Shown here: one piece after another, positions 20,946 through 54,883 of the stretch
Position numbering within the stretch: position 1 is the first letter of the stretch
Layout: each line of letters begins with the position of its first letter
From: Nilaparvata lugens
Lineage: Eukaryota; Arthropoda; Insecta; Hemiptera; Delphacidae
Reading direction: 5' to 3'
Assembly (NCBI RefSeq): GCF_014356525.2
Contig: NC_052507.1
Location: forward strand, 41,848,097-41,912,096
DNA: 64,000 nucleotides
Notes under the pieces: generated by a model
Told to the model about the DNA's origin: nothing
Databases searched by the model: none
What the model saw: only the letters and a program-made list of their open reading frames with translations
Made by a program: the position numbers and the translations under genes

Positions 20946-21045
20946 TTAGTTGTAGTGTTTTTCAACATTAGTTAAAAAACAACTGTTATATTCTATTAAT
21001 TATATTATTGAAAAGTACTCTTACTTTTCTTTAATGGAATGATAG

Positions 21046-22745
21046 TGTCACGATGTATATCGTAACTAGAGAAAGGAATTGAGTTTAGGGCTCATTTATT
21101 TGACGCTCGGCTATCTTTGATAGAATCTAAGGGGTCAACGTTCAAGCCAGCCACTGGCCTACCGCTCAGCGGTGCTGCGCATCCTCTCTCCCCTCCCTCT
21201 CGGTCACTGAGGGAGGCTCGAGAAAGGCTAGCAGGAGGCAGTCGAGTTCGGAGAGCCAGGGCGAGCGGTCGAGTGAGGTGAGAAGGAAGCAGCGAGCAGC
21301 TAGCAACGTCACAGTACGTCTTGTACTAAAGTGAACTCCGATTTCTTCAGCGACCGGGGGTTGTGTTGAGGCTAAAGACGATTAGCCTCAAACACGGTGG
21401 ACTCCATTGCTCAACACCCGTTTGGGCGAGTGCTGAATGACATTTAACCCGTTTAGACGACGGGCTACCAGTTTCGACCAACGGCGACACGTCAGGTTTG
21501 GTCGAAACCTGACTCCCCATTGGTAGACCACCAGTGGGACATCGAGGCGCAAGAGGACCTCTGGGAAGGTGTGGAAAAACCTTTCCCGCGACTCCGCGAC
21601 CGATCCGGACCCCAGGAGGACAGCTGGTGCCCGGGTGCCCGGCAAGTAGGACTTAGGAAAGTCCAGAGTGCGAGCCGCCGCAGCGCACTAATCCAGTGCG
21701 GAACCGAAAAAGGACCTCTGGGAAGGCCAGGGAAGGCCTTTACCAGAGCTCCACGACCAACCCGGACCCCGGGAAGACATCCGGTGCCCAAGGACTAAGA
21801 CTTAGTCCCGACACGAAGCCCTTTCTCGCAACTGGCACCGCAAGGTTCCTATTCCCTTCATTCCCCGACCAACCCTGTTTGGCAGTGCGAAAGCACGGCC
21901 CCTCTTTCCTAAAAGAGGGAAACATTTCTCCAAAACACTCAAAACCCTGTTCCAACCCCCAACTCGAACGAGGGTGGTTGGCGGACGCCCCACCAAGACT
22001 CCCGTCCCCTGCTGCGGCCCACCCCAGCGCACTAGTCCAGTGCGGAATTGAGAAAGGACCTCTGGGAAGGTGTGGAAAAACCTTTCCCGCGACTCCGCTA
22101 CCGACCCGGACCCCAGGAGGACAGCTGGTGCCCGGCAAGTAGGACTTAGGAAAGTCCAGAGTGCGAGCCGCCGCAGCGCACTAATCCAGTGCGGAACCGA
22201 AAAAGGACCTCTGGGAAGGTGTGGAAAAACCTTTCCCGCGACTCCGCGACCGATCCGGACCCCAGGAGGACAGCTGGTGTCCGGCAAGTAGGACTTAGGA
22301 AAGTCCAGAGTGCGAGCCGCCGCAGCGTACTAATCCAGTGCGTAACCGAAAGAGGACCTCTGGGAAGGCCAGGGAAGGCCTTTACCAGAGCTCCGCGACC
22401 AACCCGGACCCCGGGAAGACATCCGGTGCCCAAGGACTAAGACTTAGTCCCGACACGAAGCCCTTTCTCGCAACTGGCACCGCAAGGTTCCTATTCCCTT
22501 CATTCCCCGACCAACCCTGTTTGGCAGTGCGAAAGCACGGCCCCTCTTTCCTAAAAGAGGGAAACATTTCTCCAAAACACTCAAAACCCTGTTCCAACCC
22601 CCAACTCGAACGAGGGTGGTTGGCGGACGCCCCACCAAGACTCCCGTCCCCTGCTGCGGCCCACCCCAGTCGCCGACTGAGTTTAGCCGGCCCAGAGCGA
22701 CACTGGGAACTCTGATAGAGACAGGTGTGGGCAAAAATCAACTCA
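21046..22745 (+). repeat. 5' LTR of element P
   Basis: About 1.7 kb. The first about 480 bp match 30864 onward and 38855 onward almost base for base. Then come partly degenerate 149-bp units, and a terminal block (about 21690-22030) that is repeated once more at 22340-22745. One GCAGTGCGAAAGCACGGC hairpin unit, the motif of the internal array, occurs near 21882 and again near 22524. Confidence 0.75.
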
Positions 22746-27546: not shown

Positions 27547-28470
27547 GCAGTGCGAGAGCACGGCCATGCAGTGCGCAAGCACGGCGAAGCTAGGCAGTGC
27601 GAGAGCACGGCCATGCAGGGCGCAAGCCCGGCACATGCAGTGCGCAAGCACGGCATCCTTTTTGCAGTGCGAAAGCACCGCGTCCTTATTTTTGCAGTGC
27701 GACAGCACGGCGTCTCATTGCAGTGTGGAAGCACGGCGTTCCCTTGCAATGCTACTCAGGTTCTCAGAACCGGTCTGAGGTGTGGTTCACCTCGTTTTCT
27801 TTTTATATTTTGTGTTACCCTCCCCTCCTGGCAGTGCGAGAGCACCGCGACTCTCATCTGCAGTGCGGAAGCACGGCGTCCTCGGCAGTGTGGAAACACG
27901 GCAACTCTGCAGTGCGGGAGCACGGCGTCCTTTTTGCGATGCGAAAGCATGGCGTTCCTGGCAGTGCGGAAGCACGGCGCCCCGGGCAGTGTGGAAGCAC
28001 GGCGCCCCGGGCAGTGCGAAAGCACGGCGTCTCATTGCAGTGCGGAAGCACGGCGTTTCCTTGCAATGCTACTCAGGTTCTCAGAACCGGTCTGAGGTGT
28101 GGTTCACCTCGTTTTTTTTTCTATTTTGTGTTACCCTCCCCTCCTGGCAGTGCGAGAGCACCGCGACTCTCATCTGCAGTGCGGAAGCACGGCGTCCTCG
28201 GCAGTGTGGAAACATGGCAACTCTGCAGTGCAGGAGCACGGCGTCCTTTTTGCGATGCGAAAGCATGGCGTTCCTGGCAGTGCGGAAGCACGGCGCCCCG
28301 GGCAGTGCGAAAGCACGGCATCCTTTTTGCAGTGCGAAAGCACCGCGTCCTTATTTTTGCAGTGCGACAGCACGGCGTCTCATTGCAGTGCGGAAGCACG
28401 GCGTTTCCTTGCAATGCTACTCAGGTTCTCAGAACCGGTCTGAGGTGTGGTTCACCTCGTTTTCTTTTTA
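27547..28470 (+). repeat. GNRA-hairpin array, segment A (about 27 units)
   Basis: Tandem units around GCAGTGCGAAAGCACGGC separated by 2-20 bases of mostly T/C-rich spacer. Each unit is a 4-bp stem with a 4-base loop, usually GNRA (GAAA, GGAA, GAGA, GCAA, GGGA), and flanks that add two more pairs. Higher-order repeats of about 320-350 bp end with a conserved spacer containing GGTTCTCAGAACC and AGGTG...CACCT hairpins (27741, 28060, 28409). H1 is inserted in the last such spacer. Confidence 0.9.
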
Positions 28471-29555
28471 ATCCAGTCGTAATCAGACCTCCGTAGAGTG
28501 CAGATCGTAGCGAATAATTAGTGTAGAGTAGTATTAGTAGTGAAAGTGGAACAAGTTGTGTCAACACCAACTGTCAACAACCAGCAGTCCAGTCAGCAGT
28601 TTTTCACAGTGAAAACTACTCAACGTTTTTTTTTTCTGAGTGAAAAGTGTGTCACCAAATTTTTCGTTTGAACATTGCTCTCTTTAAAAATTAGGTTCTG
28701 TTTCTTTAAAAAAACAATTATCAAACCATCAATAAATTATGGTGTTTTGGATCTATCAGCCTTAAGATGATCCATTCGCCAATAAATACGCCAACAAAAC
28801 TACCACCATCCGCGCAGCTAGAATACGAGGAAGAGGAGGAAAAGGATGAAATGAATATGCCTCCCGAATTGCCACCGAAAAGTAAAAACGATAGCGGAAT
28901 ACGTTTCGAGGTACGTTCTCTTAAAAATATACAAGAGAAATTTCTGAAATGGGGGAGTGAAATAACTCTGGAGCAGAGTGTGAATAAACTAGCAAGTGAA
29001 GTTGCAAAAAGCCATAATAAGCCGATCTCATTTGCTGAGGCCGTGCAACTGCCAAAGAAGAGGACCGCACCTTCTACATTATCGAGTGCCGCCTCCACTG
29101 CTGCAGCCAGGGAGTCTCCGCCCCGGACCAAGAAGCTGTCGCCCAAGGAGAATGTGATCATCCTGAAGCCAGCAAAAATAAATGGAACGGAAAAGGAACA
29201 AAGCGGAAAAATTCGAGAAACAATAAAGAAGAACATCACCCGTGAACAAAATTTGAACATTAAAAAGCTGTTGATGTCCGTGGTGGGGGTGTGCTGTTGG
29301 TGCTTCACCCAAGGGCCAATAAGGAAAATGTTTTGGGTGATAAGGTCCTGCAACATCCAAACATAAAGGTAAGCGAGCCACAATCCAAATTGCCAAGAAT
29401 AATTCTGTATCACGTCGCTGCAGATATAACTGCTGCTGAATTGGCAAACGATGTGTATGAGAGAAATCTCGAGTCATCGTCACTGAGTAGGGAAAATTTC
29501 TTGAAAAACTTTAGGCCGATTTTAAAATAGGACCGAAAAACAAAAACACCTTTTT

Positions 29556-30598
29556 GCAGTGCGACAGCACGGCGTCTCATTGCAGTGCGGAAGCACGGCG
29601 TTTCCTTGCAATGCTACTCAGGTTCTCAGAACCGGTCTGAGGTGTGGTTCACCTCGTTTTCTTTTTATTTTTTGTGTTACCCTCCCCTCCTGGCAGTGCG
29701 AGAGCACCGCGACTCTCATGTGCAGTGCGGAAGCACGGCGTCCTCGGCAGTGTGGAAACATGGCAACTCTGCAGTGCGGGAGCACGGCGTCCTTTTTGCG
29801 ATGTGAAAGCATGGCGTTTCCTGGCAGTGCGGAAGCACGGCGCCCCGGGCAGTGCGGAAGCACGGCATCCTTTTTGCAGTGCGAAAGCACCGCGTCCTTA
29901 TTTTTGCAGTGCGACAGCATGGCGACTCATTGCAGTGCGAATGCACCGCGTCTTTTTTTTTGCAGTGCGAAAGCACGGTGCTTCTTGCAGTGCAAAAGCA
30001 CAGCATTTCTTTTTGCAGTGCAAAAGCACTGCGTTCCCTGGCAGTGCGAAAGCACTGCGACTCTCATCTGCAGTGCAGAAGCACGGCGTCCTTGGCAGTG
30101 TGGAAACATGGCGATTCTGCAGTGCGAAAGCACGGCGTCCTTCTTGCAGTGTGACAGCACGGCGTTTCCTTGCAGTGCGGAAGCACGGCGTCCCCCCCTT
30201 GCAGTGCGGAAGCACGGCGTCCCAGCAGTGTGAAAGCACCGCGTCTTTTTTTTTGCAGTGCGAAAGCACGGCGCTTCTTTGCAGTGCGATAGCACAGCAT
30301 TTTTTTTTTGCAGTGCAAAAGCACGGCGTCCCACATCGCAGTGCGAAAGCACGGCCACCCCCATTGCAGTGCGGAAGCACGGCGGTCTCTTGCAGTGTGC
30401 AAACACGGCGTCCCCCATTGCAGTGCGGAAGCACGGCGGTCTCTTGCAGTGTGCAAACACGGCGTCCCCCATTGCAGTGCGGAAGCACGGCGGTCTCTTG
30501 CAGTGTGCAAACACGGCGTCCCCCATTGCAGTGCGGAAGCACGGCGGTCTCTTGCAGTGTGTAAACACGGCGTCTCAACGCAGTGCGAAAGCACGGCA
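29556..30598 (+). repeat. GNRA-hairpin array, segment B (about 36 units)
   Basis: Same unit as segment A, with a regular sub-block at about 30365-30570 in which GTGC-GGAA-GCAC units alternate with GTGT-GCAA-ACAC units. Closely similar to segment C (37682-38589). Confidence 0.9.
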
Positions 30599-30863
30599 CA
30601 GATCTTCAAGATCTTCTCTGAAGCTAGGCCTATGATCTGGCCAGATAGCTTGCTCATTTTCTTCGGATGGTGCCGACGCACCACCACCAGTTGGCAAGGA
30701 GTCAACCTGGCGCCCAGTTTGTGTTCGGTCTATGATGACCGGCGGAGAGGCGGCAGAATGTACTCAGGCATTTGGGACATTCTGTCTGCCGTTTACCCCT
30801 TCCATCCTCACCCCCCCCTCCCCTCCCCCTCTCTTTTCCCCCCTTTCCTTAGTAGGAACAGTG

Positions 30864-31952
30864 TGTCACGATGTATATCGTAACTAGAGAAAGGAATTGA
30901 GTTTAGGGCTCATTTATTTGACGCTCGGCTATCTTTGATAGAATCTAAGGGGTCAATGTTCAAGCCAGCCACTGGCCTACCGCTTAGCGGTGCTGCGCAT
31001 CCTCTCTCCCCTCCCTCTCGGTCACTGAGGGAGGCTCGAGAAAGGCTAGCAGGAGGCAGTCGAGTTTGGAGAGCCAGGGCGAGCGGTCGAGTGAGGTGAG
31101 AAGGAAGCAGCGAGCAGCTAGCAACGTCACAGTACGTCTTGTACTAAAGTGAACTCCGATTTCTTCAGCGACCGGGAGTTGTGTTGAGGCTAAAGACGAT
31201 TAGCCTCAAACACGGTGGACTCCATTGCTCAACACCCGTTTGGGCGAGTGCTGAATGACATTTAACCCGTTTAGACAACGGGCTACCAGTTTCGACCAAC
31301 GGCGACACGTCAGGTTTGGTCGAAACCTGACTCCCCATTGGTAGACCACCAGTGGGACATCGAGGCGCAAGAGGACCTCTGGGAAGGTGTGAAAAACCTT
31401 TCTCGCAACTCCGCGACCGATCCGGACCCCAGGAGGACAGCTGGTGCCCGGCAAGTAGGACCTAGGAAAGTCCAGAGTGCGGGCCGCCGCAGCGCACTAG
31501 TCCAGTGCGGAATCGAGAGAGGACATCTGGGAAGGTGTGGAAAAACCTTTCCCTCGACTCCGCGACCGATTCGGACCCCAGGAGGACAGCTGGTGTCTGG
31601 TAAGTAGGACTTAGGAAAGTCCAGAGCGCGAGCCGCCGCAGCGCACTAATCCAGTGCGGGATCGAGAAAGGACCTCTGGGAAGGTGTGGAAAAACCTTTC
31701 CCGCGACTCCGCGACCGATCCGGACCCCAGGAGGACAGCTGGTGCCCGGCAAGTAGGACTTGGGAAAGTCCAGAGTGCGGGCCGCCGCAGCGCACTAGTC
31801 CAGTGCGGAATCGAGAAAGGACCTCTGGGAAGGTGTGGAAAAACCTTTCCCGCGACTCCGCGACCGACCCGGACCCCAGGAGGACAGCTGGTGCCCGGCA
31901 AGTAGGACTTAGGAAAGTCCAGAGCGCGGGCCGCCGCAGCGCACTAGTCCAG
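30864..31952 (+). repeat. Truncated P-element LTR copy
   Basis: Starts TGTCACGATG like the other two copies and ends inside a 149-bp tandem unit where ORF1 of H1 resumes. It holds about four 149-bp units. Confidence 0.85.
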
Positions 31953-32422
31953 TAACTGCTGCTGAATTGGCAAACGATGTGTATGAGAGAAATCTCGAGT
32001 CATCGTCACTGAGTAGGGAAAATTTCTTGAAAAACTTTAGGCCGATTTTTAAAATAGGACCGAAAAACAAAAACACCGTGCACTGGGTAGTGGAGTGCAC
32101 TGGTGAATTAAGAAAAGAATTTATTAACAAATCGCGGATTGGTATTGATTGGAGGGTGTGCCGAGTTGGAGACTATGTTGCCGTCTCTCGTTGCTTCAAG
32201 TGCCAAAAATTGGACATATCAGTAAGCATTGCACTCAAGCACAAAACACCTGTGCTCACTGTTCCACTACAGGACATGATGTTAAAGAGTGCCCTAATAG
32301 AGACAAAAAGCCCTCATGTTTAAATTGCCGCAATGATAAAAAAGCTTTCGATCACAAAGTAGGTGACAGAGAGTGCCCTTCCTATCAAAAAGCGTTACAA
32401 CAAATAATTGATAGAACTGATT

Positions 32423-34356
32423 ATGGAATCTGAAAGAAAAATATTCAATATACTGAGGATAGATAAAAATAATAGTGATAGTAAAATCAAGCAATCAACC
32501 CAACACAAAATGATTACTTTAAATTCCATCCTTAACAAAATTGTTAGTTTCTGCGTAACAACTAATACTGATAAAAGTAAGATAAGTCTGGTTTATAATT
32601 TTGGTGAGAGGGTTGATGTTATGATATCTTTTACAAAAATAGGAAATAGTATTAAAACATCCAAAGGACTCTCTCTGCTTAGAAATAAAAATATTTCTCT
32701 CTTGAAGAGTGGAATCGCCTGAATGTGTTACGAGATTCTAATTGTATAAGAGTTTTGTTTTCTGATAAAAACATTCCTATTTTCATATTAAATGATGGTG
32801 AAAATGGGGTACTTATTGATCTTTTGAATAGAATAAATGATTGGAGTAAATTCAATTACCCTTTGATTATAGGAATTGATTCTTTTAACAATCTTGGTGA
32901 AACTTATTTTGATATTCCTGCCACTGAACTCTTGAGTACTGTCATAGGAGCTAGAGATTTGAAGTTTATTTTTTATTATCGAGGTTATTGTGAAATTAAT
33001 TTTCTTAATATACCTAAGCTATCTGATAGTCCGGGAGTTGAGTACCCTGTAGGATTCTTTGAAGGTAATAATAAACGTGAAGCATTCATAAACTCTATGA
33101 TTGAATTACGGACCCTACTTCAAAACACTGATAACGAAAATGCTAAAATATATAAAAATATTCTTCTTAGGATCACGCATAGAAACATGTCAATATCAGG
33201 TGATGAACTAATAAGCGTCCTGAATAACAATATGAACATCTATGATAATAATTTGAAAAGATTCCTATTCAAAACAAACTCTAAATACCGAATGGGATAT
33301 TGCTTGGAGCAGGGTGGAAGTTACGTAGAATTTCAAGAGGATACTTTAAAATTCTCTACTAAAGAACGATATGTTTTAGTCACACGTAATACTACACTTA
33401 TGCTGAATAGCGAATTAATAAAAACTATAAATAGAATAACTCTTCATGAGTGTAAACTTCCTAAAATAAAGTGGTGTGACGGTGTTCCCGGCTGTGGTAA
33501 ATCTTACTTTATAGTCTCGCATCATGAGCCTGGCAAGGATCTAGTACTCACTCAAACACGGGCAGGTATTAAAGCAATCCGTGAAACTGTCATTGAAAGG
33601 TATGGTCGAAAACATTGTAATCGTCTTAAGCTTGATTACAGGACAGTTGGCTCATATATAATAAATCATAATCAGAATAAAACATACAATAGAGTTTTTA
33701 TTGATGAAGCTCTACTTATGCATGCGGGTTACATCGGTTTTATTGCTAACTTGAGTAGGGCCTCAGAAATAATTGTAGTTGGTGACGCAAACCAAATACC
33801 CTACATTGAGAGAAGTAATTATGCCACAAGATGGCATAAAATTTCAGAATTCTGCGAACCTTTTACAAAACAAACGGTAACTCGTAGATGTCCTATCGAT
33901 GTTTGTTTTGTCCTTTCCACTGTCTATGAAAATATTACGACGCTTAATGAAAGAGCTATCTCAATTCTGCCTACTTACAGAAATGGGGAATACCATCTGA
34001 TACAACCCGACACTTTGATATTAACATTCACCCAAGAAGAAAAACTTATGGTGGGTGATACTATAAAGTGGAGAGAGGATGTTGCACTTCACACAATCCA
34101 CGAAGCACAAGGGCTAACTCATAAAAATGTTATTCTAATCAGAATTAAGTACAAGGAGAATGAAATCTATAACAGCATGCCCCATGCGATTGTTGCCTTG
34201 TCTAGACACACTGAAACTTTCAGGTATTTAACAACCAGTCTGGTAGATGATGCTGTGGACAAACTAATTAAAAAACTTAAATTCATAGATAGTGAGGGGC
34301 TTGTTGAATGGAACAAGGAAAAGAGAAGTGGACCTGATGATATAAGTTATGAGTGA
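32423..34356 (+). CDS. H1 ORF2: superfamily-1 RNA helicase, tobamo/virga-like
   Basis: A stand-alone ORF of about 644 codons between ORF1 and the endonuclease-RT ORF. All SF1 motifs are present: GVPGCGKS (I, 33481-33504), DEA (II, 33703-33711), GDANQIPY (III, 33781-33804), TRRCPIDV (IV), HEAQG (V, 34099-34113) and VALSRH (VI, 34192-34209). The wording is that of the alphavirus-like replicase helicases, closest to tobamovirus/virga-like proteins. About 350 residues precede motif I, with a conserved NFGExVDVMISF block shared with H2; their function is unknown. The ATG at 32423 overlaps ORF1's end by 11 bases, and the TGA (34354-34356) overlaps the ORF3 ATG by 8. The only break is one base near 32703, after which the frame is open to the end. 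The expected activity is NTP-driven RNA unwinding; its use in retrotransposition is inference. Confidence 0.92.
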
Positions 34357-37298
34357 CACTGAAGAGTTCTTAATATTTTAGAAACAGAAAATGAAACAGA
34401 TGTAATCGACGATTATTTGAACTATCACTTTCACGAGGACAGAAATAAAGATGCTGAGTGTTTCAATATTATGTCTATGAATATACGTAGTTTGAATGCT
34501 AATTTCGATCAGTTTATTTGCTGCCTCAATGAATTGAAAACTGATATTCACATTATAATATTAACTGAGACCTGGTTGACTGCAGATATGCCGTTCATTT
34601 TCAACATTCCTGGATATACGGCAATAAATAAGTACACTAAACAGAATAAATGTGATGGATTATGCATGTACATAAAAGATTGCATAGGATTCAATGAAGT
34701 TTCACTCGATATCTCTGATGCCAATGTAGTTAGTGCTGACTTAAGAATTGATGATTTTATTGTGAAGGTGATTGGGGTTTATAGATCACCAAGTAATCAA
34801 AATATTGATAATTTTCTTAATAGTCTGAGTAATGAAATCAGTAAAATTCCTAATGGAATAAATGTATGTGTGGCGGGAGACATGAATATAAATACACATT
34901 CAACTAGTGTTCCTGTTCAAGATTATCTGCATATTTTCAATAGTAATGGCTATAAGTCTTACATAAATGGTGATACCCGAGTAACAACCACAACAAATTC
35001 TTGCATTGACCACATTTTTTATAAAAATTCAGGCAACCATTCTATGTTCACTAAAGGAGTTATATTTAGGACAACCATAACTGACCACTACGCGGTTGTA
35101 CTGAACTTGGTGAAGGTCCCTATCAATAAGGATAATAGAAACGTATTGATAAACACATTAACTAGAACCAACTATCATGCACTATTGGAACGCATAAGGA
35201 ATGAAGATTGGGGAGAAATCTATACCGTGAATGGAAGCATTGACACTATTATGGATAAATTTGTCGATCGTTTGACCAGTCTCATCAATCAATGCAAGAA
35301 GGTAAAAGTGATACCTAACAGACTTCGTCCCCTGAAGCCCTGGATATCTGAAGGCATCATAAGATCAATAATCACGCGGGACAAAATGCATTCTAGACTC
35401 AGAAGAGATCCTAATAACAATATCTTAAAGAATGAATATAAGGCTTATCGTAATGGTTTGAATAAGATCATAAATCATGCAAAGGAAGTCTACTATAAAG
35501 GGAAAATTGAAAATTGTAATAACAACAGCATGAAGTTGTGGAAGTGCATAAACGAGGTTATAGGTGAGGCCAGTATCAAGGAAAAGAGTACTGAACTTGA
35601 TGCTCACTCCCTCAACAATTATTCACAAATGTGGGTAAATTACAAGCTCAAACTATCAATATCCCTGATAATACTGGTGATCGATTTCCTGCAATACAGA
35701 TCGATAATACGTTTTTTATGAGACCAACGTGCCCAGTTGAAGTTGAGGCAACTATTAAAAATCTAAAGAACAACTGCAGTCCTGGTATTGATGGTCTAGG
35801 TAATATTACGCTGAAGAAAATAGCCAATTTTATATCTCAACCTCTCGCTTTCATTTTTAATAGATGCTTTGAGGAGGGATATTTTCCCGAGCACCTCAAA
35901 TCAGCCAAAATAAAACCTCTATTCAAACAAGGTGACCCGACTAATCCCTGTAATTATAGACCGATTAGTCTTATCAGCAACCTTGCTAAAATAATGGAGA
36001 AACTAATAAAGTCAAGAGTTGTTTCTTTCTTGAATCTTAACAAAATAATCAACAAGAACCAATTCGGTTTCCAAAATAGTAAAAGTACATCTGACGCTCT
36101 AATAAAATTCATCAATACTTTATCTGATAAAATAAACTCCAATAAGAAAACTATTGCGGTCTTCCTAGATATACGCAAAGCTTTTGATACAATACCTCAT
36201 AATACTTTGTTCAATAAACTAGAGTCCTATGGTTTCAGAGGAGTCTCGCTTAAATTGTTCAAAAGCTATCTGAGTAATAGAACCCAGTCCCTAACCATAA
36301 ATGATCAATCTAGTGTAACTAACTTAACTTCTTATGGTCTTCCTCAAGGTACTGTACTTTCTCCCATCCTTTTCATACTCTATGTAAATGACTTTTTAAA
36401 TTTAAGACTTCTAAACTCAACTGTGATATCCTTTGCAGATGATACTGCAGCTATTTTTCACGGAAATTCATGGAATGAAGTTCATACTATAGCTGAAAAT
36501 AATATGCTTTTAATTAAGAAGTGGTTAGATAAGAATACCTTAAGTTTAAATATTGAAAAAACTAATTACATTACTTTCTCTGCAAATAGAGTAGGGCAGC
36601 CTAACGAGAATCAAGATTTGAGACTCCATTCTCAGTGCAATTTAAACTTGGGTAATTGTGATTGTCCCACCATTAAAAAAGTCAATAATACTAAGTATTT
36701 GGGAATTATAATTGATGAAAACCTTAAATGGGATGTTCATATTAAATACATATGTAGAAAAATTAGATATTTATCCTTTAAATTTTACCAAGTTAACAGA
36801 ATTCTTAATAAGAACCACCTGAAAATGATGTATCATGCTCTTGTCAAGTCAATTCTGCAGTATGGCATAGTTGTTTGGGGAGGCTGTTTCAACTGTCATA
36901 TTGCTGAATTATTTGTAGCACAAAAACTGATAATTAAAACTATATTAAACAAACCCAGGCTCTATCCAACGGATATGGTTTTTAGTGATTTTGAGGTCAT
37001 GACTATACGTCAATTATACATAAAAACCGTAATTGAGTACTTAATAAAATATAGATCCGATTTTCCTCTCACAATAAACTCTACTCTTAATTATTATAAT
37101 CTAAGGGCCACTGCTAACAAATATGTAACCTATAACACTAATATTGAATGTATAAGGAGGCAATTAATTTACATAGGTACTAAAATAATAAACCTCATTC
37201 CGAATCACTTTCTCATGGACAATAAGGTCAGCGGAAAAATTAAACTGGATATAAAAAACTGGACATACAGTAATTTCTTCTTCCATTTAGATATATGA
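34349..37298 (+). CDS. H1 ORF3: APE endonuclease plus reverse transcriptase
   Basis: The ATG at 34349 lies inside the end of ORF2 (ATGAGTGA). The endonuclease has MNIRSLNANF near 34474, LTETWL near 34561, GDMN near 34880, DHIF near 35008 and TDHY near 35083. The RT has NYRPISLI near 35950, FLDIRKAFDTIPH near 36160, GLPQGTVLSP near 36335, catalytic FADD at 36432-36443, a thumb region and an LGIIIDENLKW block. It ends at TGA 37296-37298. Two single-base losses, at a T run near 34375 and near 35621, split the frame; the remaining sequence is open throughout. The clade is undetermined (jockey-superfamily-like RT). Catalytic residues are all present. Confidence 0.92.
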
Positions 37299-37658
37299 CT
37301 CGAGATTTCTGCTCCAGCATTTTTATTTTTTTTTTCATTAGTTTTTTCATTTTTCAGTGGACTCGCTTACCTTTATTTTGAGTACCTATTCCTCTGTTTT
37401 CTTCCTTCCCCCCATTTCTCCCTTCCTTTTTTCCTCATTACTTCTCTTCTCTTCTTTGCCTGCCTATTACATGGGAAACCATAGTTGGCTAGGTATCTTC
37501 CTCTCTTTTTTCTCTTCTCCAACACACCCAAACACTAAGCCCATGGTTTTTTATATTTGTAACATTTTATTGTGTTTTATTTGTTTCGTAAATCTTTGTA
37601 ATTTTGTTTTGTCTTGTTTTGTGTGTTTTTAATAAATTGAAAAATAAAATAATTGAAA
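37299..37658 (+). other. 3' UTR of H1
   Basis: T-rich, with AATAAA motifs at about 37630 and 37643. It ends in AATAATTGAAA with no long poly(A). The element boundary is defined by the empty site at 29656-29690. Confidence 0.75.
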
Positions 37659-37681
37659 TTTTTTGTGTTACCCTTCCCTCC

Positions 37682-38589
37682 TGGCAGTGCGAGAGCACCA
37701 CGACTCTCATGTGCAGTGCGGAAGCACGGCGTCCTCGGCAGTGTGGAAACATGGCAACTCTGCAGTGCGGGAGCACGGCGTCCTTTTTGCGATGTGAAAG
37801 CATGGCGTTTCCTGGCAGTGCGGAAGCACGGCGCCCCGGGCAGTGCGGAAGCACGGCATCCTTTTTGCAGTGCGAAAGCACCGCGTCCTTATTTTTGCAG
37901 TGCGACAGCACGGCGACTCATTGCAGTGCGAAAGCACCGCGTCTTTTTTTTTGCAGTGCGAAAGCACGGCGCTTCTTGCAGTGCGAAAGCACAGCGTTTC
38001 TTTTTGCAGTGCGAAAGCACTGCGTTCCCTGGCAGTGCGAAAGCACTGCGACTCTCATCTGCAGTGCAGAAGCACGGCGTCCTTGGCAGTGTGGAAACAT
38101 GGCGATTCTGCAGTGCGAAAGCACGGCGTCCTTCTTGCAGTGTGACAGCACGGCGTTTCCTTGCAGTGCGGAAGCACGGCGTCCCCCCCTTGCAGTGCGG
38201 AAGCACGGCGTCCCAGCAGTGTGAAAGCACCGCGTCTTTTTTTTTGCAGTGCGAAAGCACGGCGCTTCTTTGCAGTGCGATAGCACAGCGTTTTTTTTTG
38301 CAGTGCAAAAGCACGGCGTCCCACATCGCAGTGCGAAAGCACGGCCACCCCCATTGCAGTGCGGAAGCACGGCAGTCTCTTGCAGTGTGCAAACACGGCG
38401 TCCCCCATTGCAGTGCGGAAGCACGGCGGTCTCTTGCAGTGTGCAAACACGGCGTCCCCCATTGCAGTGCGGAAGCACGGCGGTCTCTTGCAGTGTGCAA
38501 ACACGGCGTCCCCCATTGCAGTGCGGAAGCACGGCGTTTCCTTGCAGTGCGGAAGCACGGCGTCCCACATCGCAGTGCGAAAGCACGGC
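37682..38589 (+). repeat. GNRA-hairpin array, segment C (about 33 units)
   Basis: Continuation of array A on the far side of H1. Near-identical to segment B over most of its length. The same hairpin rule applies. Confidence 0.9.
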
Positions 38590-38854
38590 ACAGATCTTCA
38601 AGATCTTCTCTGAAGCTAGGCATATGATCTGGCCAGATAGCTTGCTCATTTTCTTCGGATGGTGCCGACGCACCACCACCAGTTGGCAAGGAGTCAACCT
38701 GGCGCCCAGTTTGTGTTCGGTCTATGATGACCGGCGGAGAGGCGGCAGAATGTACTCAGGCATTTGGGACATTCTGTCTGCCGTTTACCCCTTCCATCCT
38801 CACCCCCCCTCCCCTCCCCCTCTCTTTTCCCCCCTTCCCTTAGTAGGAACAGTG
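38590..38854 (+). other. Unique block between array and 3' LTR of P
   Basis: Also present at 30599-30863. It contains CAGATCTTCAAGATCTTCTC (a small palindrome), TGGCGCCCAG (like a tRNA-primer site) about 38701, a stem GGCGGCAGAATGT/ACATTCTGTCTGCC and a C/T-rich tract before TGTCACG. Its function is unknown. No purine tract precedes the LTR. Confidence 0.5.
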
Positions 38855-40899
38855 TGTCACGATGTATATCGTAACTAGAGAAAGGAATTGAGTTTAGGGC
38901 TCATTTATTTGACGCTCGGCTATCTTTGATAGAATCTAAGGGGTCAATGTTCAAGCCAGCCACTGGCCTACCGCTCAGCGGTGCTGCGCATCCTCTCTCC
39001 CCTCCCTCTCGGTCACTGAGGGAGGCTCGAGAAAGGCTAGCAGGAGGCAGTCGAGTTTGGAGAGCCAGGGCGAGCGGTCGAGTGAGGTGAGAAGGAAGCA
39101 GCGAGCAGCTAGCAACGTCACAGTACGTCTTGTACTAAAGTGAACTCCGATTTCTTCAGCGACCGGGAGTTGTGTTGAGGCTAAAGACGATTAGCCTCAA
39201 ACACGGTGGACTCCATTGCTCAACACCCGTTTGGGCGAGTGCTGAATGACATTTAACCCGTTTAGACAACGGGCTACCAGTTTCGACCAACGGCGACACG
39301 TCAGGTTTGGTCGAAACCTGACTCCCCATTGGTAGACCACCAGTGGGACATCGAGGCGCAAGAGGACCTCTGGGAAGGTGTGGAAAAACCTTTCCCGCGA
39401 CTCCGCGACCGATCCGGACCCCAGGAGGACGGCTGGTGCCCGGCAAGTAGGACTTAGGAAAGTCCAGAGCGCGAGCCGCCGCAGCGCACTAATCCAGTGC
39501 GGGATCGAGAAAGGACCTCTGGGGAGGTGTGGAAAAAACTTTTCCTGCGACTCCGCGACCGATCCGGACCCCAGGAGGACAGCTGGTGCCCGGCAAGTAG
39601 GACTTAGGAAAGTCCAGAGTGCGGGCCTCCGCAGCGCACTAGTCCAGTGCAGAATCGAGAGAGGACATCTGGGAAGGTGTGGAAAAACCTTTCCCGCAAC
39701 TCCGCGACCGATCCGGACCCCAGGAGGACAGCTGGTGCCCGGCAAGTAGGACCTAGGAAAGTCCAGAGTGCGGGCCGCCGCAGCGCACTAGTCCAGTGCG
39801 GAATCGAGAGAGGACATCTGGGAAGGTGTGGAAAAACCTTTCCCTCGACTCCGCGACCGATCCGGACCCCAGGAGGACAGCTGGTGCCCGGCAAGTAGGA
39901 CTTAGGAAAGTCCAGAGCACGGGCCGCCGCAGCGCACTAATCCAGTGCGGGATCGAGAAAGGACCTCTGGGAAGGTGTGGAAAAACCTTTCCCGCGACTC
40001 CGCGACCGATCCGGACCCCAGGAGGACAGCTGGTGCCCGGCAAGTAGGACTTGGGAAAGTCCAGAGTGCGGGCCGCCGCAGCGCACTAGTCCTGTGCGGA
40101 ATCGAGAAAGGACCTCTGGGAAGGTGTGGAAAAACCTTTCCCGCGACTCCGCGACCGACCCGGACCCCAGGAGGACAGCTGGTGCCCGGCAAGTAGGACT
40201 TAGGAAAGTCCAGAGCGCGGGCCGCCGCAGCGCACTAGTCCAGTGCGACTCCGCGACCGACCCGGACCCCAGGAGGACAGCTGGTGCCGGCAAGTAGGAC
40301 TTAGGAAAGTCCAGAGTGCGAGCCGCGGCAGCGCACTAATCCAGTGCGGAACCGAAAAAGGACCTCTGGGAAGGTGTGGAAAAACCTTTCCCGCGACTCC
40401 GCGACCGATCCGGACCCCAGGAGGACAGCTGGTTCCGGCAAGTAGGACTTAGGAAAGTCCAGAGCGCGAGCCGCCGCAGCATACTAATCCAGTGCGAAAC
40501 CGAAAGAGGACCTCTGGGAAGGCCAGGGAAGGCCTTTACCAGAGCTCCGCGACCAACCCGGACCCCGGGAAGACATCCGGTGCCCAAGGACTAAGACTTA
40601 GTCCCGACACGAAGCCCTTTCTCGCGACTGGCACCGCAAGGTTCCTATTCCCTTCATTCCGCGACCAACCCTGTTTGGCAGTGCGAAAGCACGGCCCCTC
40701 TTTCCTAAAAGAGGGAAACATTTCTCCAAAACACTCAAAACCCTGTTCCAACCCCCAACTCGAACGAGGGTGGTTGGCGGACGCCCCACCAAGACTCCCG
40801 TCCCCTGCTGCGGCCCACCCCAGTCGCCGACTGAGTTTAGCCGGCCCAGAGCGACACTGGGAACTCTGATAGAGACAGGTGTGGGCAAAAATCTACTCA
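38855..40899 (+). repeat. 3' LTR of element P with 149-bp tandem units
   Basis: About 2.05 kb, longer than the 5' LTR because it carries seven to eight 149-bp units (39360-40500), one internally shortened near 40245. Units contain inverted repeats such as CGCACTAGTCCAGTGCG and GGACTTAGGAAAGTCC. Confidence 0.75.
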
Positions 40900-41151: not shown

Positions 41152-41655
41152 AATAGTATATTTCGCACCTAGGGCCGAAAATGAGAATTTTCCGGCTTAA
41201 ATCGGTTTAAATCAGTTTTCAAGTCCGAGGCCGTAGGCCGAGGAGTCGAGGACTAGAAAAGATTGAGAGCCAGAAAAACATTTTTGCCCTTGGTGTGAAC
41301 ACTATTTTTTGCCACACAGAAAAATAAACAATATATTATATGAGAATAATTGTTTATTAAGCACTTCCGAAAGCAGAAGTGGAAGCTCATAGCTCTAGCA
41401 AATCTGGATATCAGGAAATTGTCCAAGTATTTTTATTTTTTATTCTGATTTGTCTAAATAACCTAAAAGATTATGTTCAATTATGTGGGAGGTTGAGTTT
41501 ATACTCTTCTATTCTTTTAAATGACAATAAGATGATATTATTATAAATGTTCTAATTATTGAATAATAACACAAATAATGAAAAGTTTTTGATCAGCTGT
41601 TTTAGCACACTTGAAATTTGGCCAATCTGAATGTCAATGGAAGTTTGGGTTAGAA
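41152..41655 (+). repeat. R-family interspersed repeat, copy 1
   Basis: Begins near ATATTTCGCACCTAGGGCC and shares CCACACAGAAAAATAAACAA and ACCTAAAAGATTATG with the copies at 43655 and, inverted, 52350. No coding capacity seen. Confidence 0.7.
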
Positions 41656-41836
41656 GTTCCACAGAATAGGTACAGAATGGAATCTTGTAATCTAACCAAT
41701 GCTTTTTACATGACACAAATACTAGACACGTCACGTGACCTTGGGAAGTTCAATCCTGGCCTTCTGATTGGCTCGTGGCAGTGAATGAGATCAATTGATC
41801 CGGATCATTAAAGTGATCCGAACCTACCATCAATAC

Positions 41837-42055
41837 TATAGTGAGGTCCACGTTATAATGGCAGTGGATAAAGATAGAAAAACAATGTTGCCGATTCTCT
41901 GTTTCAATTTATTTTATTTCTACACTGTCAAAAATAAATTTGGCATCGTTGCAGAGCTAGAAAAGTACAGTACTACCTGCTTTGTGGAATGATAGACAAA
42001 TATACCAACATCAAAGTTAATCAACTACTGTCATTTTAACGTGGACCTCACTATA
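41837..42055. mobile_element. MITE, about 215 bp, complete
   Basis: Terminal inverted repeats of about 25 bp, starting TATAGTGAGGTCCACGTTAT and ending in the reverse complement GTGGACCTCACTATA. TA dinucleotides at both ends suggest a TA target site. Too short to encode a transposase. Confidence 0.8.
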
Positions 42056-42459
42056 TTACAATGCGGCGCTTCCTAACAAGATGGCGGATTTTGGCATCAG
42101 GGTCAGGGTACTAGCCAAGTTTCCATACTGTATGTATACTGTGGCTCTATCCTACTCTGAAAATCGAATTTGAATAGTTCATCTATATAATAAGAGAGAG
42201 TAGGGTTGTGTTTGTTGTGTGTTTGTTTGTTCGCATCAAAACATGTCAACTTGTGGATTGCATACTGGAGAAACGGGAATGATTTAGATCTCCAAATTTT
42301 GAACATAGATTCTAAAAATATCAATCTCGTGCACCTGGAAGCCCAAATTTCAATTTTCCTTCTAGTTTTTTCAGAATTAATGTTCAAATTCATCTATGCT
42401 ACCGTAGGCTACATGAAGTTCCATAGCCCAAAGTGTGTCTTTTTATGAGCAGGTTATAA

Positions 42460-42545
42460 GACTATGTAGCGCAGCGGTAAAAGGCCTGCTTACGGAGTGA
42501 TGGTTCCTCGGTTCGAATCCCCGAGGCTTTCCCATTTTTTTGTTC
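42460..42545 (+). ncRNA. tRNA-like unit (SINE head or tRNA pseudogene)
   Basis: An A-box-like TAGCGCAGCGGTAAAAGG and a B-box GGTTCGAATCC (42510-42520) at tRNA spacing, a TTACGGA loop that would place ACG as anticodon, and a T7 run just after. The acceptor and anticodon stems do not pair well, so it is unlikely to be a working tRNA. Confidence 0.45.
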
Positions 42546-42840
42546 TTAATTTTTTCCCTCGAAACGTATTATTATCAATTACTTTTTGAAGGAATTTTTT
42601 TTCATTACTATTGAACTTGGATTTTATCAAATAATTATTTTTAATGTGAAATTTTGCCACCAGTACAAATTGGACATAGTCCTCATGCTGTAGGCCTATA
42701 ATTGAATTTCATAAGAAAAACATGAATAGATCACAATAAAATAAGAAATAAATTTATATTCTTCAGTTATAATGTACTATCAAATTTAAATTACGGTAAC
42801 TAATATAAAAAATAGCTAATAAAAGTCGAAATTCATCGAC

Positions 42841-42935
42841 AAAAAAAAAAATGTCACTGACCGAGGTTCGAACCTAGATCATGATTGTAATTCACTGAGA
42901 TTTGAGGTGTTACGCCTTTACGCTCTCGGCCATTG
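42841..42935 (-). ncRNA. Second tRNA-like unit, opposite strand
   Basis: On the minus strand, TGGCCGAGAGCGTAAAGGCG (a Leu/Ser-type A box) is followed by a long variable region, GGTTCGAACC as B box and a run of 11 T. Stems are degenerate, so this is a SINE-like or pseudogene copy. Confidence 0.4.
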
Positions 42936-43654
42936 CATTATTTTTGATCAAAGAGGCCTGTGAGTCAGGTAACGTATGTAGGCTACGATAATATAGTGTA
43001 GCATATAGCGGCAAACTTGAAGCCGGTTTGCCGGCATTTTCACAACAAAATATTGCTCTGGAAATAGTTAAATCATAGAGAAAACATTCGAAGATTCAAT
43101 CTTGAGTGGGCCTAATGTTTTCTCTATATGGTTTGATATTGAAGAAAAATTATCTAAAAGTTTTAATAATGAATTACGGAAAAATTACTAGGAATTTTTC
43201 AGTCAAGGCTGAGTTTCACCAGTAGGCTTACCTTAAACTTTAGATCCCTGCTGTATTTTCCTATTATTATTGTTGATTGTATTGCATTAAGAAGTGGAAT
43301 TCGATAATAAAAAGAAACAATTATTACTCTACCTCACTTTTAAATATTGATACAATTATTGTACTTTGATTTCAAATTCGATTCTTCACTTTTAAAGACT
43401 TGCGATACTTACCTTTCTGACAATGGACAATGCAGCCAACATTATATTGTTGAGGCTATGGAGATATCATCGTATTCTATTGTTTGATATCAAAAACACA
43501 ATAATAAATATTAAATTATGAAACAGTAATTCATAAAATATATTATAGACATGATACCGCGATTCACGATAAATAATTATATAGATTATTACAGTCGTTA
43601 TGAGATTATCTCTATGATTTTTGTGAGATCGGACACGATCAGCTGTTATTCAAG
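42936..43654. other. Gene-free AT-rich stretch
   Basis: Nothing supported: no open frame with motifs and no repeat ends that I could define. Confidence 0.4.
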
Positions 43655-44195
43655 GTCATTTTACAGCCCTAGGGCCGAAAAGTTTTACCGGCCTGGTCGG
43701 AAAACAATCACTTTCGGCCTCCATATGACGCACGTAAACCAGCTCATTACATCCAAGTGTGGCGAAAAACATTTTTTCCCATGGTGAGAACGTTATTTTT
43801 CGCCACACAGAAAAATAAACAATATAAACATGAGAATAATTGTTTATTAGGCACTTCCAAAAGCAAATCAGGAAGGTCATAGCTCTAGCAAACCTGAGGT
43901 AATCTGAATATCAGGAAATTGTCCAAGTATTTTTATTTTTTATTCTGATTTGTCCAAATAACCTAAAAGATTATGTTTAATTATGTAAGAGGTTGAATTT
44001 ATACCTTTTATTCTTCCAAATGACAATAAGATGATATTATTATAAATGTTTTGATTCTTGAATAATAAACACAAATAATGAAAAGTTTTTTGATCAGCTG
44101 TTTTAGCACACTTGAAATTTGGCCAATCTGAATGTCAACATCAACAATGCTTGTTGTCATTGACTTCGGAAGTTTAGGTTAGAAGTTCTAATAGT
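43655..44195 (+). repeat. R-family interspersed repeat, copy 2
   Basis: Starts at ACAGCCCTAGGGCCGAAAA. The right 350 bp align closely with copy 1. It abuts the left end of LINE H2, with an inverted partial copy at its right end (52350-52690). Confidence 0.7.
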
Positions 44196-52349: not shown

Positions 52350-52690
52350 ACGTCATAATCTTTTAGGTTATTTAGACAAAAAAGAATTAAAATAAAAAAT
52401 ACTTGGATAATTTCTTGATATTCAGATAACCTAAGATTTGCTAGAGCTATGACCTTCCAGTTTTGCTTTCGGAAGTGCCTAATAAACAATTATTCTCAAA
52501 TATATTATATATTGTTTTATTTTTCTGTGTGGCGAAAAATAGTGTTCGCACCACGGGCAAAAATGTTTCTCCAGCTCTCAATCTTTTCTAGTCCTCGGCC
52601 TACGGCCTCGGACTTGAAAACCGATTTCGAGCCGGAAAAGTCTCATTTTCGGCCCTAGATGCGAAATATACCATTACAGCCCTAGGGCAA
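52350..52690 (-). repeat. R-family interspersed repeat, copy 3 (inverted)
   Basis: The reverse complement matches copy 1 closely, including the GTCCGAGGCCGTAGGCCGAG palindromic block and GGCCCTAG. Forms the right flank of H2. Confidence 0.7.
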
Positions 52691-53110
52691 AGACGTTAAA
52701 GAGGTATAGACCCACAATGCCCATGCCTTCTCTTACTTGAAATAGAAGGCTGCCATTGAGGTATTTCAGCGTGAGAAATTAAAACTTCATAGGGGAGAGA
52801 ATGCTGTTTTGGCGCTGCAATACAGTTTAATATTAGGCTGTTTAACTCATTTCTTCGAAATGAGATTACATTATTCGTATTATTGTATAAAAATGAATTT
52901 TTAATAACCTGGGTTAGTAGACTTACCTAGGCTACCAGGCCTAGGTAACAACTAACCTGGGCCTTATTACAATCAATTTATTTGAACTCAACCTGCAAAA
53001 ATTAAATATGAGTGGTTGCAGAGTTTCAAACTATCATAAATGAATAACAAGTTGACAATTAAAATTAGTCTCAAGTATTATTAAACGAATGGCTGAATGT
53101 ATTTGTTTTG

Positions 53111-53329
53111 TATAGTGAGGTCCACGTTATAATGACAGTATTTGATCAATTCTGGTTTTGCTATCCTTGTCTATCATTCGACAAAGCCGGTGGTACTATA
53201 TTTTTCTAGGTCCACAACGATGACAATTATGTTTTTGACAGTGTAGAAATATAATTAATTAATTCAGAGAATCGGCATCGCTTTTCTTCTATCTTTATCC
53301 CCTGCCATTATATCGTGGACCACACTCTA
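53111..53329. mobile_element. MITE, about 217 bp, complete
   Basis: Same family as 41837-42055: TATAGTGAGGTCCACGTTAT at the left, inverted GTGGACCACACTCTA at the right. Internal sequence matches the arms of the fold-back at 19860-20470 (TGCTATCCTTGT, GTGTAGAAAT). Confidence 0.75.
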
Positions 53330-53635
53330 GTTACCTGTGATACGAAATTTAGACAGTTCTATTTGATCTATTGCTATAATTTATAGCTGAACAAAACTTT
53401 GTGATTGTTGGTAATCTAACCAGCTATGTCTCCAGCGTTTCTATGTAACCAGAATTTATGAAAATTTCAAATAATTTAATAATTATAATATTGATTAATC
53501 CAGCATCCACGAACAAATCACCACTTATGGGATTGTAATAATCTTCCAGGTTGACCCCTCAATGGCTGATTTCCACATGTTCAATTCCAAGTAAGACACT
53601 AGCGCTGCATGTGAGTCTATACATCTTTAAGGTCT

Positions 53636-53951: not shown

Positions 53952-54883
53952 TTAAGCTGCGTTTACACCGGAGTTGATAACATGAGTTTTATTAATAAAA
54001 AGTTGTCAACTTGACTGAATCGACAAAAAATTCTCTTGAAAAAAGTTGATAGCTCGTGTTTTCAACAGGAAATTCCTTGTTATTAACAAAATTTATGCTA
54101 TCCATCGAGAGTCGGTAAGTTTATTTGTTAATAACAGGTTACTATCTTCCCCGCAACACCCTCGTCAAGCATCCCTACCCTACAACTACAGCTGTTCCCT
54201 ACTAACTACAGCTGCAGACAAAACACGTGACAAAGTTATTAACATTTTGTTGATAACAAAACTAGCAGTGAAAAGAAAATGTTATTAACTTATGATGAAA
54301 ACTTTTGTTCTAAACGCATTATAATTTAGTTACATTAGCTCAAATGAAGATCATTATTTTAATGATCACACACATGTTTCAATTCAAATTTGAAGACAAT
54401 AATCTCTTTTCTGTATAGGGCTACTTGTAATATAAATATAAAGAAAATAAAAATCTCAGTACCCTTTTTTTGAAATATTTTATCACAACATGTTTCGGAC
54501 ATTTATGCCATTTTCAAGTGATATGAAGTGAAGTAGTATTTATTTATTTACTTCATATCACTTGAAAATGGCATAAATGGCCGAAACATGTTGTGATAAA
54601 ATATTTCAAAAAAAGGGTACTGAGATTTTTATTCTCTTTATATTTTTATTGAAGACAATTTTTTGCTTTTTATTCCGGCTGTTATATCATATGAATAGTC
54701 TCGTTAAATAAAATCATATGGAAGTCAATTATATTGATTACAAGATCTTGGTAATAACAAGTAATTTTCTGTTAGAAACATGAGTTATTAACTTTTGTAA
54801 AGAGCAATTTTTGACGATTCAGTCAAGTTAATAACTTTTTGTTAATAACTCGTGTTATTAACTCCGGTGTAAACGCAGCTTAA
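53952..54883. mobile_element. TTAA-bounded TIR element with nested palindrome
   Basis: Ends TTAAGCTGCGTTTACACCGG and the reverse complement, with TIRs of about 120 bp. Flanking TTAA at both ends could be the target site. Internal DNA encodes nothing recognisable. A second, tighter palindrome (54431-54648) sits inside, perhaps a later insertion. Confidence 0.75.
54431..54648. repeat. Near-perfect palindrome, about 100-bp arms, about 20-bp loop
   Basis: Left arm 54431-54529 and right arm 54549-54648 are inverted copies with very few mismatches (for example CATTTATGCCATTTTCAAGT and its complement). A transcript across it would form a long hairpin. Confidence 0.85.

What the first reader, a model, noticed from the sequence alone, without database searches (positions are those of the whole stretch)
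28471..37658. LINE with a separate ORF for a plant-virus-type SF1 helicase between gag and endonuclease-RT
H1 encodes a complete helicase with motifs I-VI (GVPGCGKS, DEA, GDANQIPY, TRRCPIDV, HEAQG, VALSRH) whose wording is that of tobamo/virga-like replicases. It sits as its own ORF2 between a CCHC ORF1 and an APE-RT ORF3. From memory, a 2015 report (Lazareva and co-workers) described R1-type insect LINEs with a tobamovirus-like helicase fused at the C-terminus of ORF2. Here the helicase is upstream of the endonuclease, unfused, and the RT has FADD, so this looks like a different architecture and possibly an independent capture. An RNA helicase could help template unwinding during target-primed reverse transcription or counter small-RNA defence; both are inference.
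Basis: partly seen in the sequence, partly recalled or inferred. Interest (0 to 1): 0.96.

Follow-up and report, generated by a model that had tools for sequence, protein, structure and literature searches.

The report
Jumping gene carrying viral RNA helicase
A large family of insect jumping genes (LINEs), probably from the brown planthopper, carries between its two usual genes a third gene that matches the RNA helicase of tobamovirus-like viruses and would likely help the element copy its RNA; such captures were reported in 2017, but the three-gene layout and a predicted macro-domain-like front part of the helicase protein appear to be new.

Summary
28471-37657 is one copy of a LINE with three genes: CCHC gag, virus-type SF1 helicase, endonuclease-RT. 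The window copy is broken by frameshifts and a 2.4-kb satellite insert in gag. The genome holds at least 78 places matching this helicase. In 20 of 20 fetched copies, chosen among the best matches, the helicase lies directly before the endonuclease-RT; 3 of 20 keep all three frames open. Three further families (43-50% helicase identity) have the same gene order and overlapping start/stop junctions, so the helicase belongs to the element. In this family it is under purifying selection.

The helicase and its accessory domain fold like tomato mosaic virus helicase; the nearest named viral models are mostly arthropod virga-like replicases. The first ~200 residues are predicted to fold like a macro domain, by fold only; sequence tests were negative. 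Morozov et al. 2017 already reported Jockey-like LINEs with a virus-like helicase ORF beside the EN-RT ORF, including in Nilaparvata lugens, so the headline is known. A separate gag, tricistronic coupling and a macro-like domain seem additional. Best mechanism (inferred): duplex unwinding within the LINE ribonucleoprotein; anti-silencing is the main rival.

The parts
28471..37657 (+). one copy of the helicase-bearing LINE (broken), inserted in a satellite/minisatellite array
   Evidence: 5' terminus shared with 11 of 20 genomic copies and a common 3' end with A/TTGAA-rich tail; flanks join as an unoccupied site
28471..28766 (+). 5' untranslated region
   Evidence: common 5' end up to the gag ATG
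28767..29550 (+). ORF1 (gag) N-terminal part, with internal deletion and frameshift relative to open copies
29551..31952 (.). 2.4-kb satellite insert inside ORF1, 97.4% identical to the satellite right of the LINE and spanning its unoccupied insertion site; rearrangement or assembly artefact
   Evidence: flanked by a 124/125-bp duplication (29427-29550 and 31953-32077)
31953..32433 (+). ORF1 (gag) C-terminal part with the CCHC knuckles (frameshifted here), stop 32431-32433
32423..34356 (+). ORF2: virus-type helicase gene (644 codons in open copies; one-base frameshift near 32690 here)
32504..33033 (+). predicted macro-domain-like N-terminal domain (residues about 28-204)
   Evidence: fold prediction, structural matches; no sequence support
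33034..33459 (+). accessory domain matching the N-terminal domain of tobamovirus helicase (residues about 205-346)
33460..34353 (+). SF1 helicase core, motifs I-VI (residues 347-644)
34349..37298 (+). ORF3: APE-type endonuclease and reverse transcriptase (983 codons in open copies; frameshifted here); start overlaps the ORF2 stop (ATGAGTGA)
37299..37657 (+). 3' untranslated region and A/TTGAA-rich tail

Best explanation
This is a LINE, of the Jockey-like kind by published comparison, whose middle gene encodes a virus-type SF1 helicase, likely taken from a virga-like RNA virus, and the protein would likely unwind RNA or RNA-DNA duplexes in the element's own ribonucleoprotein while it is copied into the genome. 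Shown by sequence: three genes in one order with overlapping stop/start codons; the helicase next to the EN-RT in every fetched copy; intact motifs; purifying selection in this family; near-identical copies; the same order in four families. Predicted: a macro-like domain at the N-terminus, so that the captured piece would be macro-like + accessory + helicase from one viral replicase. Inferred: translation of genes 2 and 3 by termination-reinitiation; RNA-stimulated ATPase and unwinding in cis. Such unwinding would clear structured template during target-primed reverse transcription, or peel RNA off the first cDNA strand, because the EN-RT protein has no detected RNase H. Not shown: any activity.
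Against: No biochemical or expression data. RNA silencing suppression is the only function with a published experiment in what I read, on a lepidopteran TRAS helicase: a moderate effect in a plant assay, later called weak. Morozov et al. 2019 judge the helicase non-essential for transposition (PMC6338049). Most Jockey-type LINEs move without a helicase (recalled). Some helicase pairs show no constraint (family B pair ratio 0.98, p=0.56; L037 against L009 0.62, p=0.08), as expected for dead copies. The PF01443 profile also rings over its cut-off in 9 of 14 control prokaryote genomes, so the profile alone does not prove viral origin. EN-RT identities do not single out family A as gag and helicase do. 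Capture from a virga-like virus rests on structural ranking and one paper's searches, not on a tree made here.
Confidence: 0.5

Rival explanations
1. The helicase protein mainly protects the LINE from small-RNA silencing, by binding or unwinding double-stranded RNA that would feed siRNA or piRNA pathways, as tobamovirus replicase helicase does in plants.
For: Published complementation of a suppressor-deficient plant virus by a TRAS-LINE helicase, which the authors call not unequivocal, and their proposal for these LINEs. A separate ORF could act in trans. A macro-like domain could add RNA or ADP-ribose binding (inference).
Against: Invariance of the NTPase residues in 29 of 29 is more than pure RNA binding would need (inference). 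The predicted macro-like domain lacks the usual ADP-ribose motifs by eye. No test in insect cells in the sections I read.
Confidence: 0.3
2. The captured viral gene is kept because it serves the insect host, for example by antiviral chimeric cDNA formation (Morozov et al. 2019), and rides on the LINE.
For: Hypothesis in PMC6338049.
Against: Kept in the same place in mobile three-gene units of four families, with selection in family A similar to gag and RT, as expected for a gene selected through transposition.
Confidence: 0.05
3. Genes 2 and 3 are expressed by +1 frameshifting as gag-helicase-EN-RT fusions rather than by termination-reinitiation.
For: At both junctions in four families the downstream frame is +1 to the upstream one (worked out from the coordinates; family C gag junction by eye).
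Against: An ATG sits 5, 8 or 11 nt before each of the eight upstream stop codons, which fusion would not need.
Confidence: 0.15
4. The macro-like call is wrong and the N-terminal domain is an unrelated alpha/beta fold.
Against: 26 of 50 listed rows name a macro domain or macroH2A and 3 more are YmdB; the other 21 I recall as macro-fold or related. Model pLDDT 87.5, pTM 0.84. Some virga-like replicases match the same stretch, only one viral match with E below 0.001.
Confidence: 0.25

Closest known systems
Jockey-like LINEs with SF1H in Hemiptera and Orthoptera (Morozov, Lazareva and Solovyev 2017, PMC5563155)
   Same: Same kind, reported in Nilaparvata lugens among others: an ORF with a virus-type SF1 helicase close to or overlapping the EN-RT ORF.
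   Different: There the helicase ORF is called ORF1 and said to hold a single domain, overlapping ORF2 by 2 nt. Here a separate CCHC gag ORF precedes it, the EN-RT overlap is 8 nt, and ~200 residues before the tobamovirus-like region are predicted macro-like. 'macro' occurs 0 times in that main text. Its figure 4 could not be seen.
TRAS/R1 LINEs with C-terminal SF1H (Lazareva et al. 2015, PMC4686597)
   Same: Virus-type helicase captured by an insect LINE.
   Different: Helicase fused to the C-terminus of ORF2 in Lepidoptera; here an own ORF upstream of EN-RT.
Replicase helicases of tobamoviruses and arthropod virga-like viruses
   Different: No methyltransferase or RdRp domain found by Pfam in the LINE proteins scanned; carried in DNA by a LINE.
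Helicase fused to Ty1/Copia proteins in Aedes and Leptopilina (Morozov et al. 2017)
   Same: Viral SF1H in a retroelement.
   Different: LTR element, fused ORF.

Membership tests
LINE (non-LTR retrotransposon), Jockey-like | APE endonuclease and RT in one ORF, A-rich or simple-repeat tail | tested here: met
LINE (non-LTR retrotransposon), Jockey-like | gag-like ORF1 with CCHC knuckles | tested here: met
   knuckle-like motifs by eye; zf-CCHC E=8.9e-4, 19.7 bits against cut-off 20.8, in family A; no Pfam hit in family B gag
LINE (non-LTR retrotransposon), Jockey-like | RT phylogeny within the Jockey clade | not tested
LINE (non-LTR retrotransposon), Jockey-like | target-site duplications | tested here: inconclusive
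   an 11-nt duplication with one mismatch in 1 copy; 6-8 nt or no matches in 7 other copies and none in the window; one further copy gave a spurious 3' end
SF1H-bearing Jockey-like LINE (Morozov 2017) | virus-type SF1 helicase ORF next to EN-RT ORF | tested here: met
   20 of 20 family A copies, 6 of 6 loci of families B-D (in one of these only the endonuclease part of EN-RT was found)
TRAS/R1 LINE with fused SF1H | helicase at the C-terminus of ORF2 | tested here: not met
   helicase is upstream and unfused
alphavirus-like (virga/tobamo) replicase helicase | PF01443 core plus N-terminal accessory domain | tested here: met
   PF01443 alone also rings in 9 of 14 control prokaryotes
alphavirus-like (virga/tobamo) replicase helicase | position in a tree with viral helicases | not tested
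   no viral replicase sequences were obtained; two scans of viral contigs gave none
macro domain (PF01661) | macro fold | tested here: inconclusive
macro domain (PF01661) | sequence profile match and ADP-ribose motifs | tested here: not met
   no PF01661 among the families listed for 29 members (25 of 35 shown); PDB profile search and hhalign to the YmdB family negative; NAAN and GGG motifs absent by eye (motifs recalled)

The most novel reading that the evidence does not exclude
These LINEs are tricistronic chimeras in which a whole replicase segment of a virga-like RNA virus (macro-like domain, accessory domain and SF1 helicase) has become a core gene between gag and EN-RT, inherited with both across several families, and supplies RNA or RNA-DNA unwinding that takes the place of an RNase H during cDNA synthesis.
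Probability: 0.25. Interest if true: 0.85.

Novelty: new variant of a known kind. Interest (0 to 1): 0.6.

Why it matters
Capture of RNA-virus helicases by LINEs was known as an added domain or as an ORF1. Here the captured gene is the middle gene of a three-gene LINE in four families of one genome, with at least 78 places of this family's helicase and selection on it, in family A, similar to that on gag and RT. That makes a question testable: what an RNA helicase does for target-primed reverse transcription in elements without a detected RNase H. If the macro-like fold is right, a larger piece of viral replicase was domesticated than described.

Tried and rejected
Separate-insertion hypothesis: rejected. 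Ordinary cellular SF1 helicase: disfavoured; viral helicases lead the sequence and fold searches, with UPF1-type helicases lower. Viral contigs: the first scan found none; the second gave two loci that I judged phage-like from their gene layout alone and set aside. Sequence support for the macro domain: none; in the hhalign controls the reversed profile and the accessory-domain profile scored as high or higher than the N-terminal one; the YmdB profile was narrow (16 sequences, the others 68-84% identical to the first). Target-site duplications: weak. Searches of the own genome with EN-RT, with PF01661 and with P0009 or P0028 did not complete, so helicase-free RT relatives were not looked for. 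Profile search of the protein database added one new homologue, P0044. Paper searches. 'macro domain' with 'non-LTR retrotransposon' gave one unrelated listing; a passage search in PMC7154061 showed a macro domain only in flavi-like viruses. That a macro-like domain in such LINEs is not in print rests only.
Full report
Observation. The helicase is real and virus-type: PF01443 E=2.7e-37 on 32689-34356, best solved relatives the ToMV replicase helicase (E about 2e-32) and then two alphavirus-type chains (E 1.6e-12 and 4.7e-12). It lies in a LINE copy at 28471-37657 that shares its 5' terminus with 11 of 20 other copies and ends in an A/TTGAA-rich tail. The window copy is broken in all three genes.

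Other copies. The window maps to G000:C4:41848097-41912096 of an assembly of 1.085 Gb in 6870 contigs. Its size (recalled for the species) and the reported presence of such LINEs fit the brown planthopper Nilaparvata lugens; the species is inferred, not tested. The helicase query gives 83 matches at 78 places, with 78 of 1278 candidates scored, many 97-100% identical with a 649-codon frame. I fetched 20 of the best 22 rows, leaving out the window itself and one on a short contig: helicase directly before EN-RT in 20 of 20, gag recognised in 13 of 20, all three frames full length in 3 of 20 (recognition by short motifs in frames of 150 codons or more). Copies with zero or few differences in their genes point to recent movement.

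Families. PF01443 gives 150 of 150 scored hits over the cut-off, weakest E=2.4e-33, from 807 candidates; as a control the same profile rings over its cut-off in 9 of 14 prokaryote genomes, so it is not specific to viruses by itself. Six loci represent three further families B-D. Gag, helicase and endonuclease follow in that order in 6 of 6, the RT part is found in 5 of 6, and most of these copies are frameshifted somewhere. Amino-acid identity between families is 43-50% for the helicase, 38-54% for gag (C gag partial) and 28-56% for EN-RT (B and D partial). Gag and helicase both put family A furthest from the rest; EN-RT pairs B with C (56%) and leaves A and D both distant. This is consistent with inheritance as one unit but four families do not prove it. 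In the protein database 34 homologues were found, one of them a named Laodelphax striatellus protein.

Junctions. In all four families the helicase ATG lies 11 nt (A) or 14 nt (B-D) before the end of the gag stop codon, and the EN-RT ATG lies 8 nt before the end of the helicase stop codon (the family C gag junction was read by eye from L031, whose helicase frame is shifted there). In family A the first junction is kept in 19 of 20 copies and the second in 20 of 20. Termination-reinitiation is the likely mode; Morozov et al. cite it for LINEs.

Selection. Nonsynonymous to synonymous ratio in family A, pooled over all pairs (which are not independent): helicase 0.22 (13 copies), gag 0.17 (6, very few changes), EN-RT 0.16 (7), copies chosen for open frames. 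Pairs between subfamilies: L009/L019 0.22, p=5e-4; L019/L022 0.13, p=7.5e-8. Against: L009/L037 0.62, p=0.08; family B pair 0.98, p=0.56; family D pair 0.43, p=0.045; family C pair 2 nonsynonymous and 0 synonymous. By segment, over four pooled pairs: 0.27 for residues 28-204, 0.57 for 205-346, 0.21 for the core.

Prior art. Lazareva et al. 2015 (PMC4686597; abstract and one section read) described TRAS LINEs with a fused helicase and a moderate effect of one of them in a plant silencing-suppressor assay. Morozov et al. 2017 (PMC5563155; abstract, sections 6, 7, 10 and a term search) described Jockey-like LINEs with an SF1H ORF near or overlapping the EN-RT ORF, including dozens of N. lugens sequences, as ORF1 with a single domain and an independent capture. 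Morozov et al. 2019 (PMC6338049; first of four parts) discusses antiviral roles and calls the helicase accessory. The finding's headline is thus known; gag as a third gene, conserved coupling, four families, selection and the macro-like domain are additions as far as searches show.

Mechanism. The catalytic residues are kept in 29 of 29 homologues and the two EN-RT proteins scanned have no detected RNase H, so an unwinding role in the LINE ribonucleoprotein during target-primed reverse transcription is preferred; silencing suppression is the main rival. Neither was tested.

Noticed in passing
29427-32077: A 2.4-kb satellite block sits inside the LINE's ORF1, flanked by a 124/125-bp duplication of LINE sequence; the block is 97.4% identical to the satellite right of the LINE and spans its unoccupied insertion site. 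Rearrangement or mixing of haplotypes in assembly.
   Followed up: partly
21026-22579, 27547-28470, 29551-31952, 37658-40733: Repeated blocks of GC-rich minisatellite (units of about 54 and 149 bp); two of the blocks lie 7991-7992 bp apart in register.
   Followed up: partly
L033 (reverse strand of the locus), 5028 onwards in element orientation: The family D locus L033 has its EN-RT frame interrupted after the endonuclease part; no RT frame was recognised.
   Followed up: no
G000:C2:94816143-94817531: A 96% identical helicase copy lies in an unusually long open frame of 777 codons, possibly a fusion.
   Followed up: no
54429-54650 and 41247-44140 / 52354-53331: Long inverted repeats, possibly DNA transposon or MITE remnants.
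   Followed up: no
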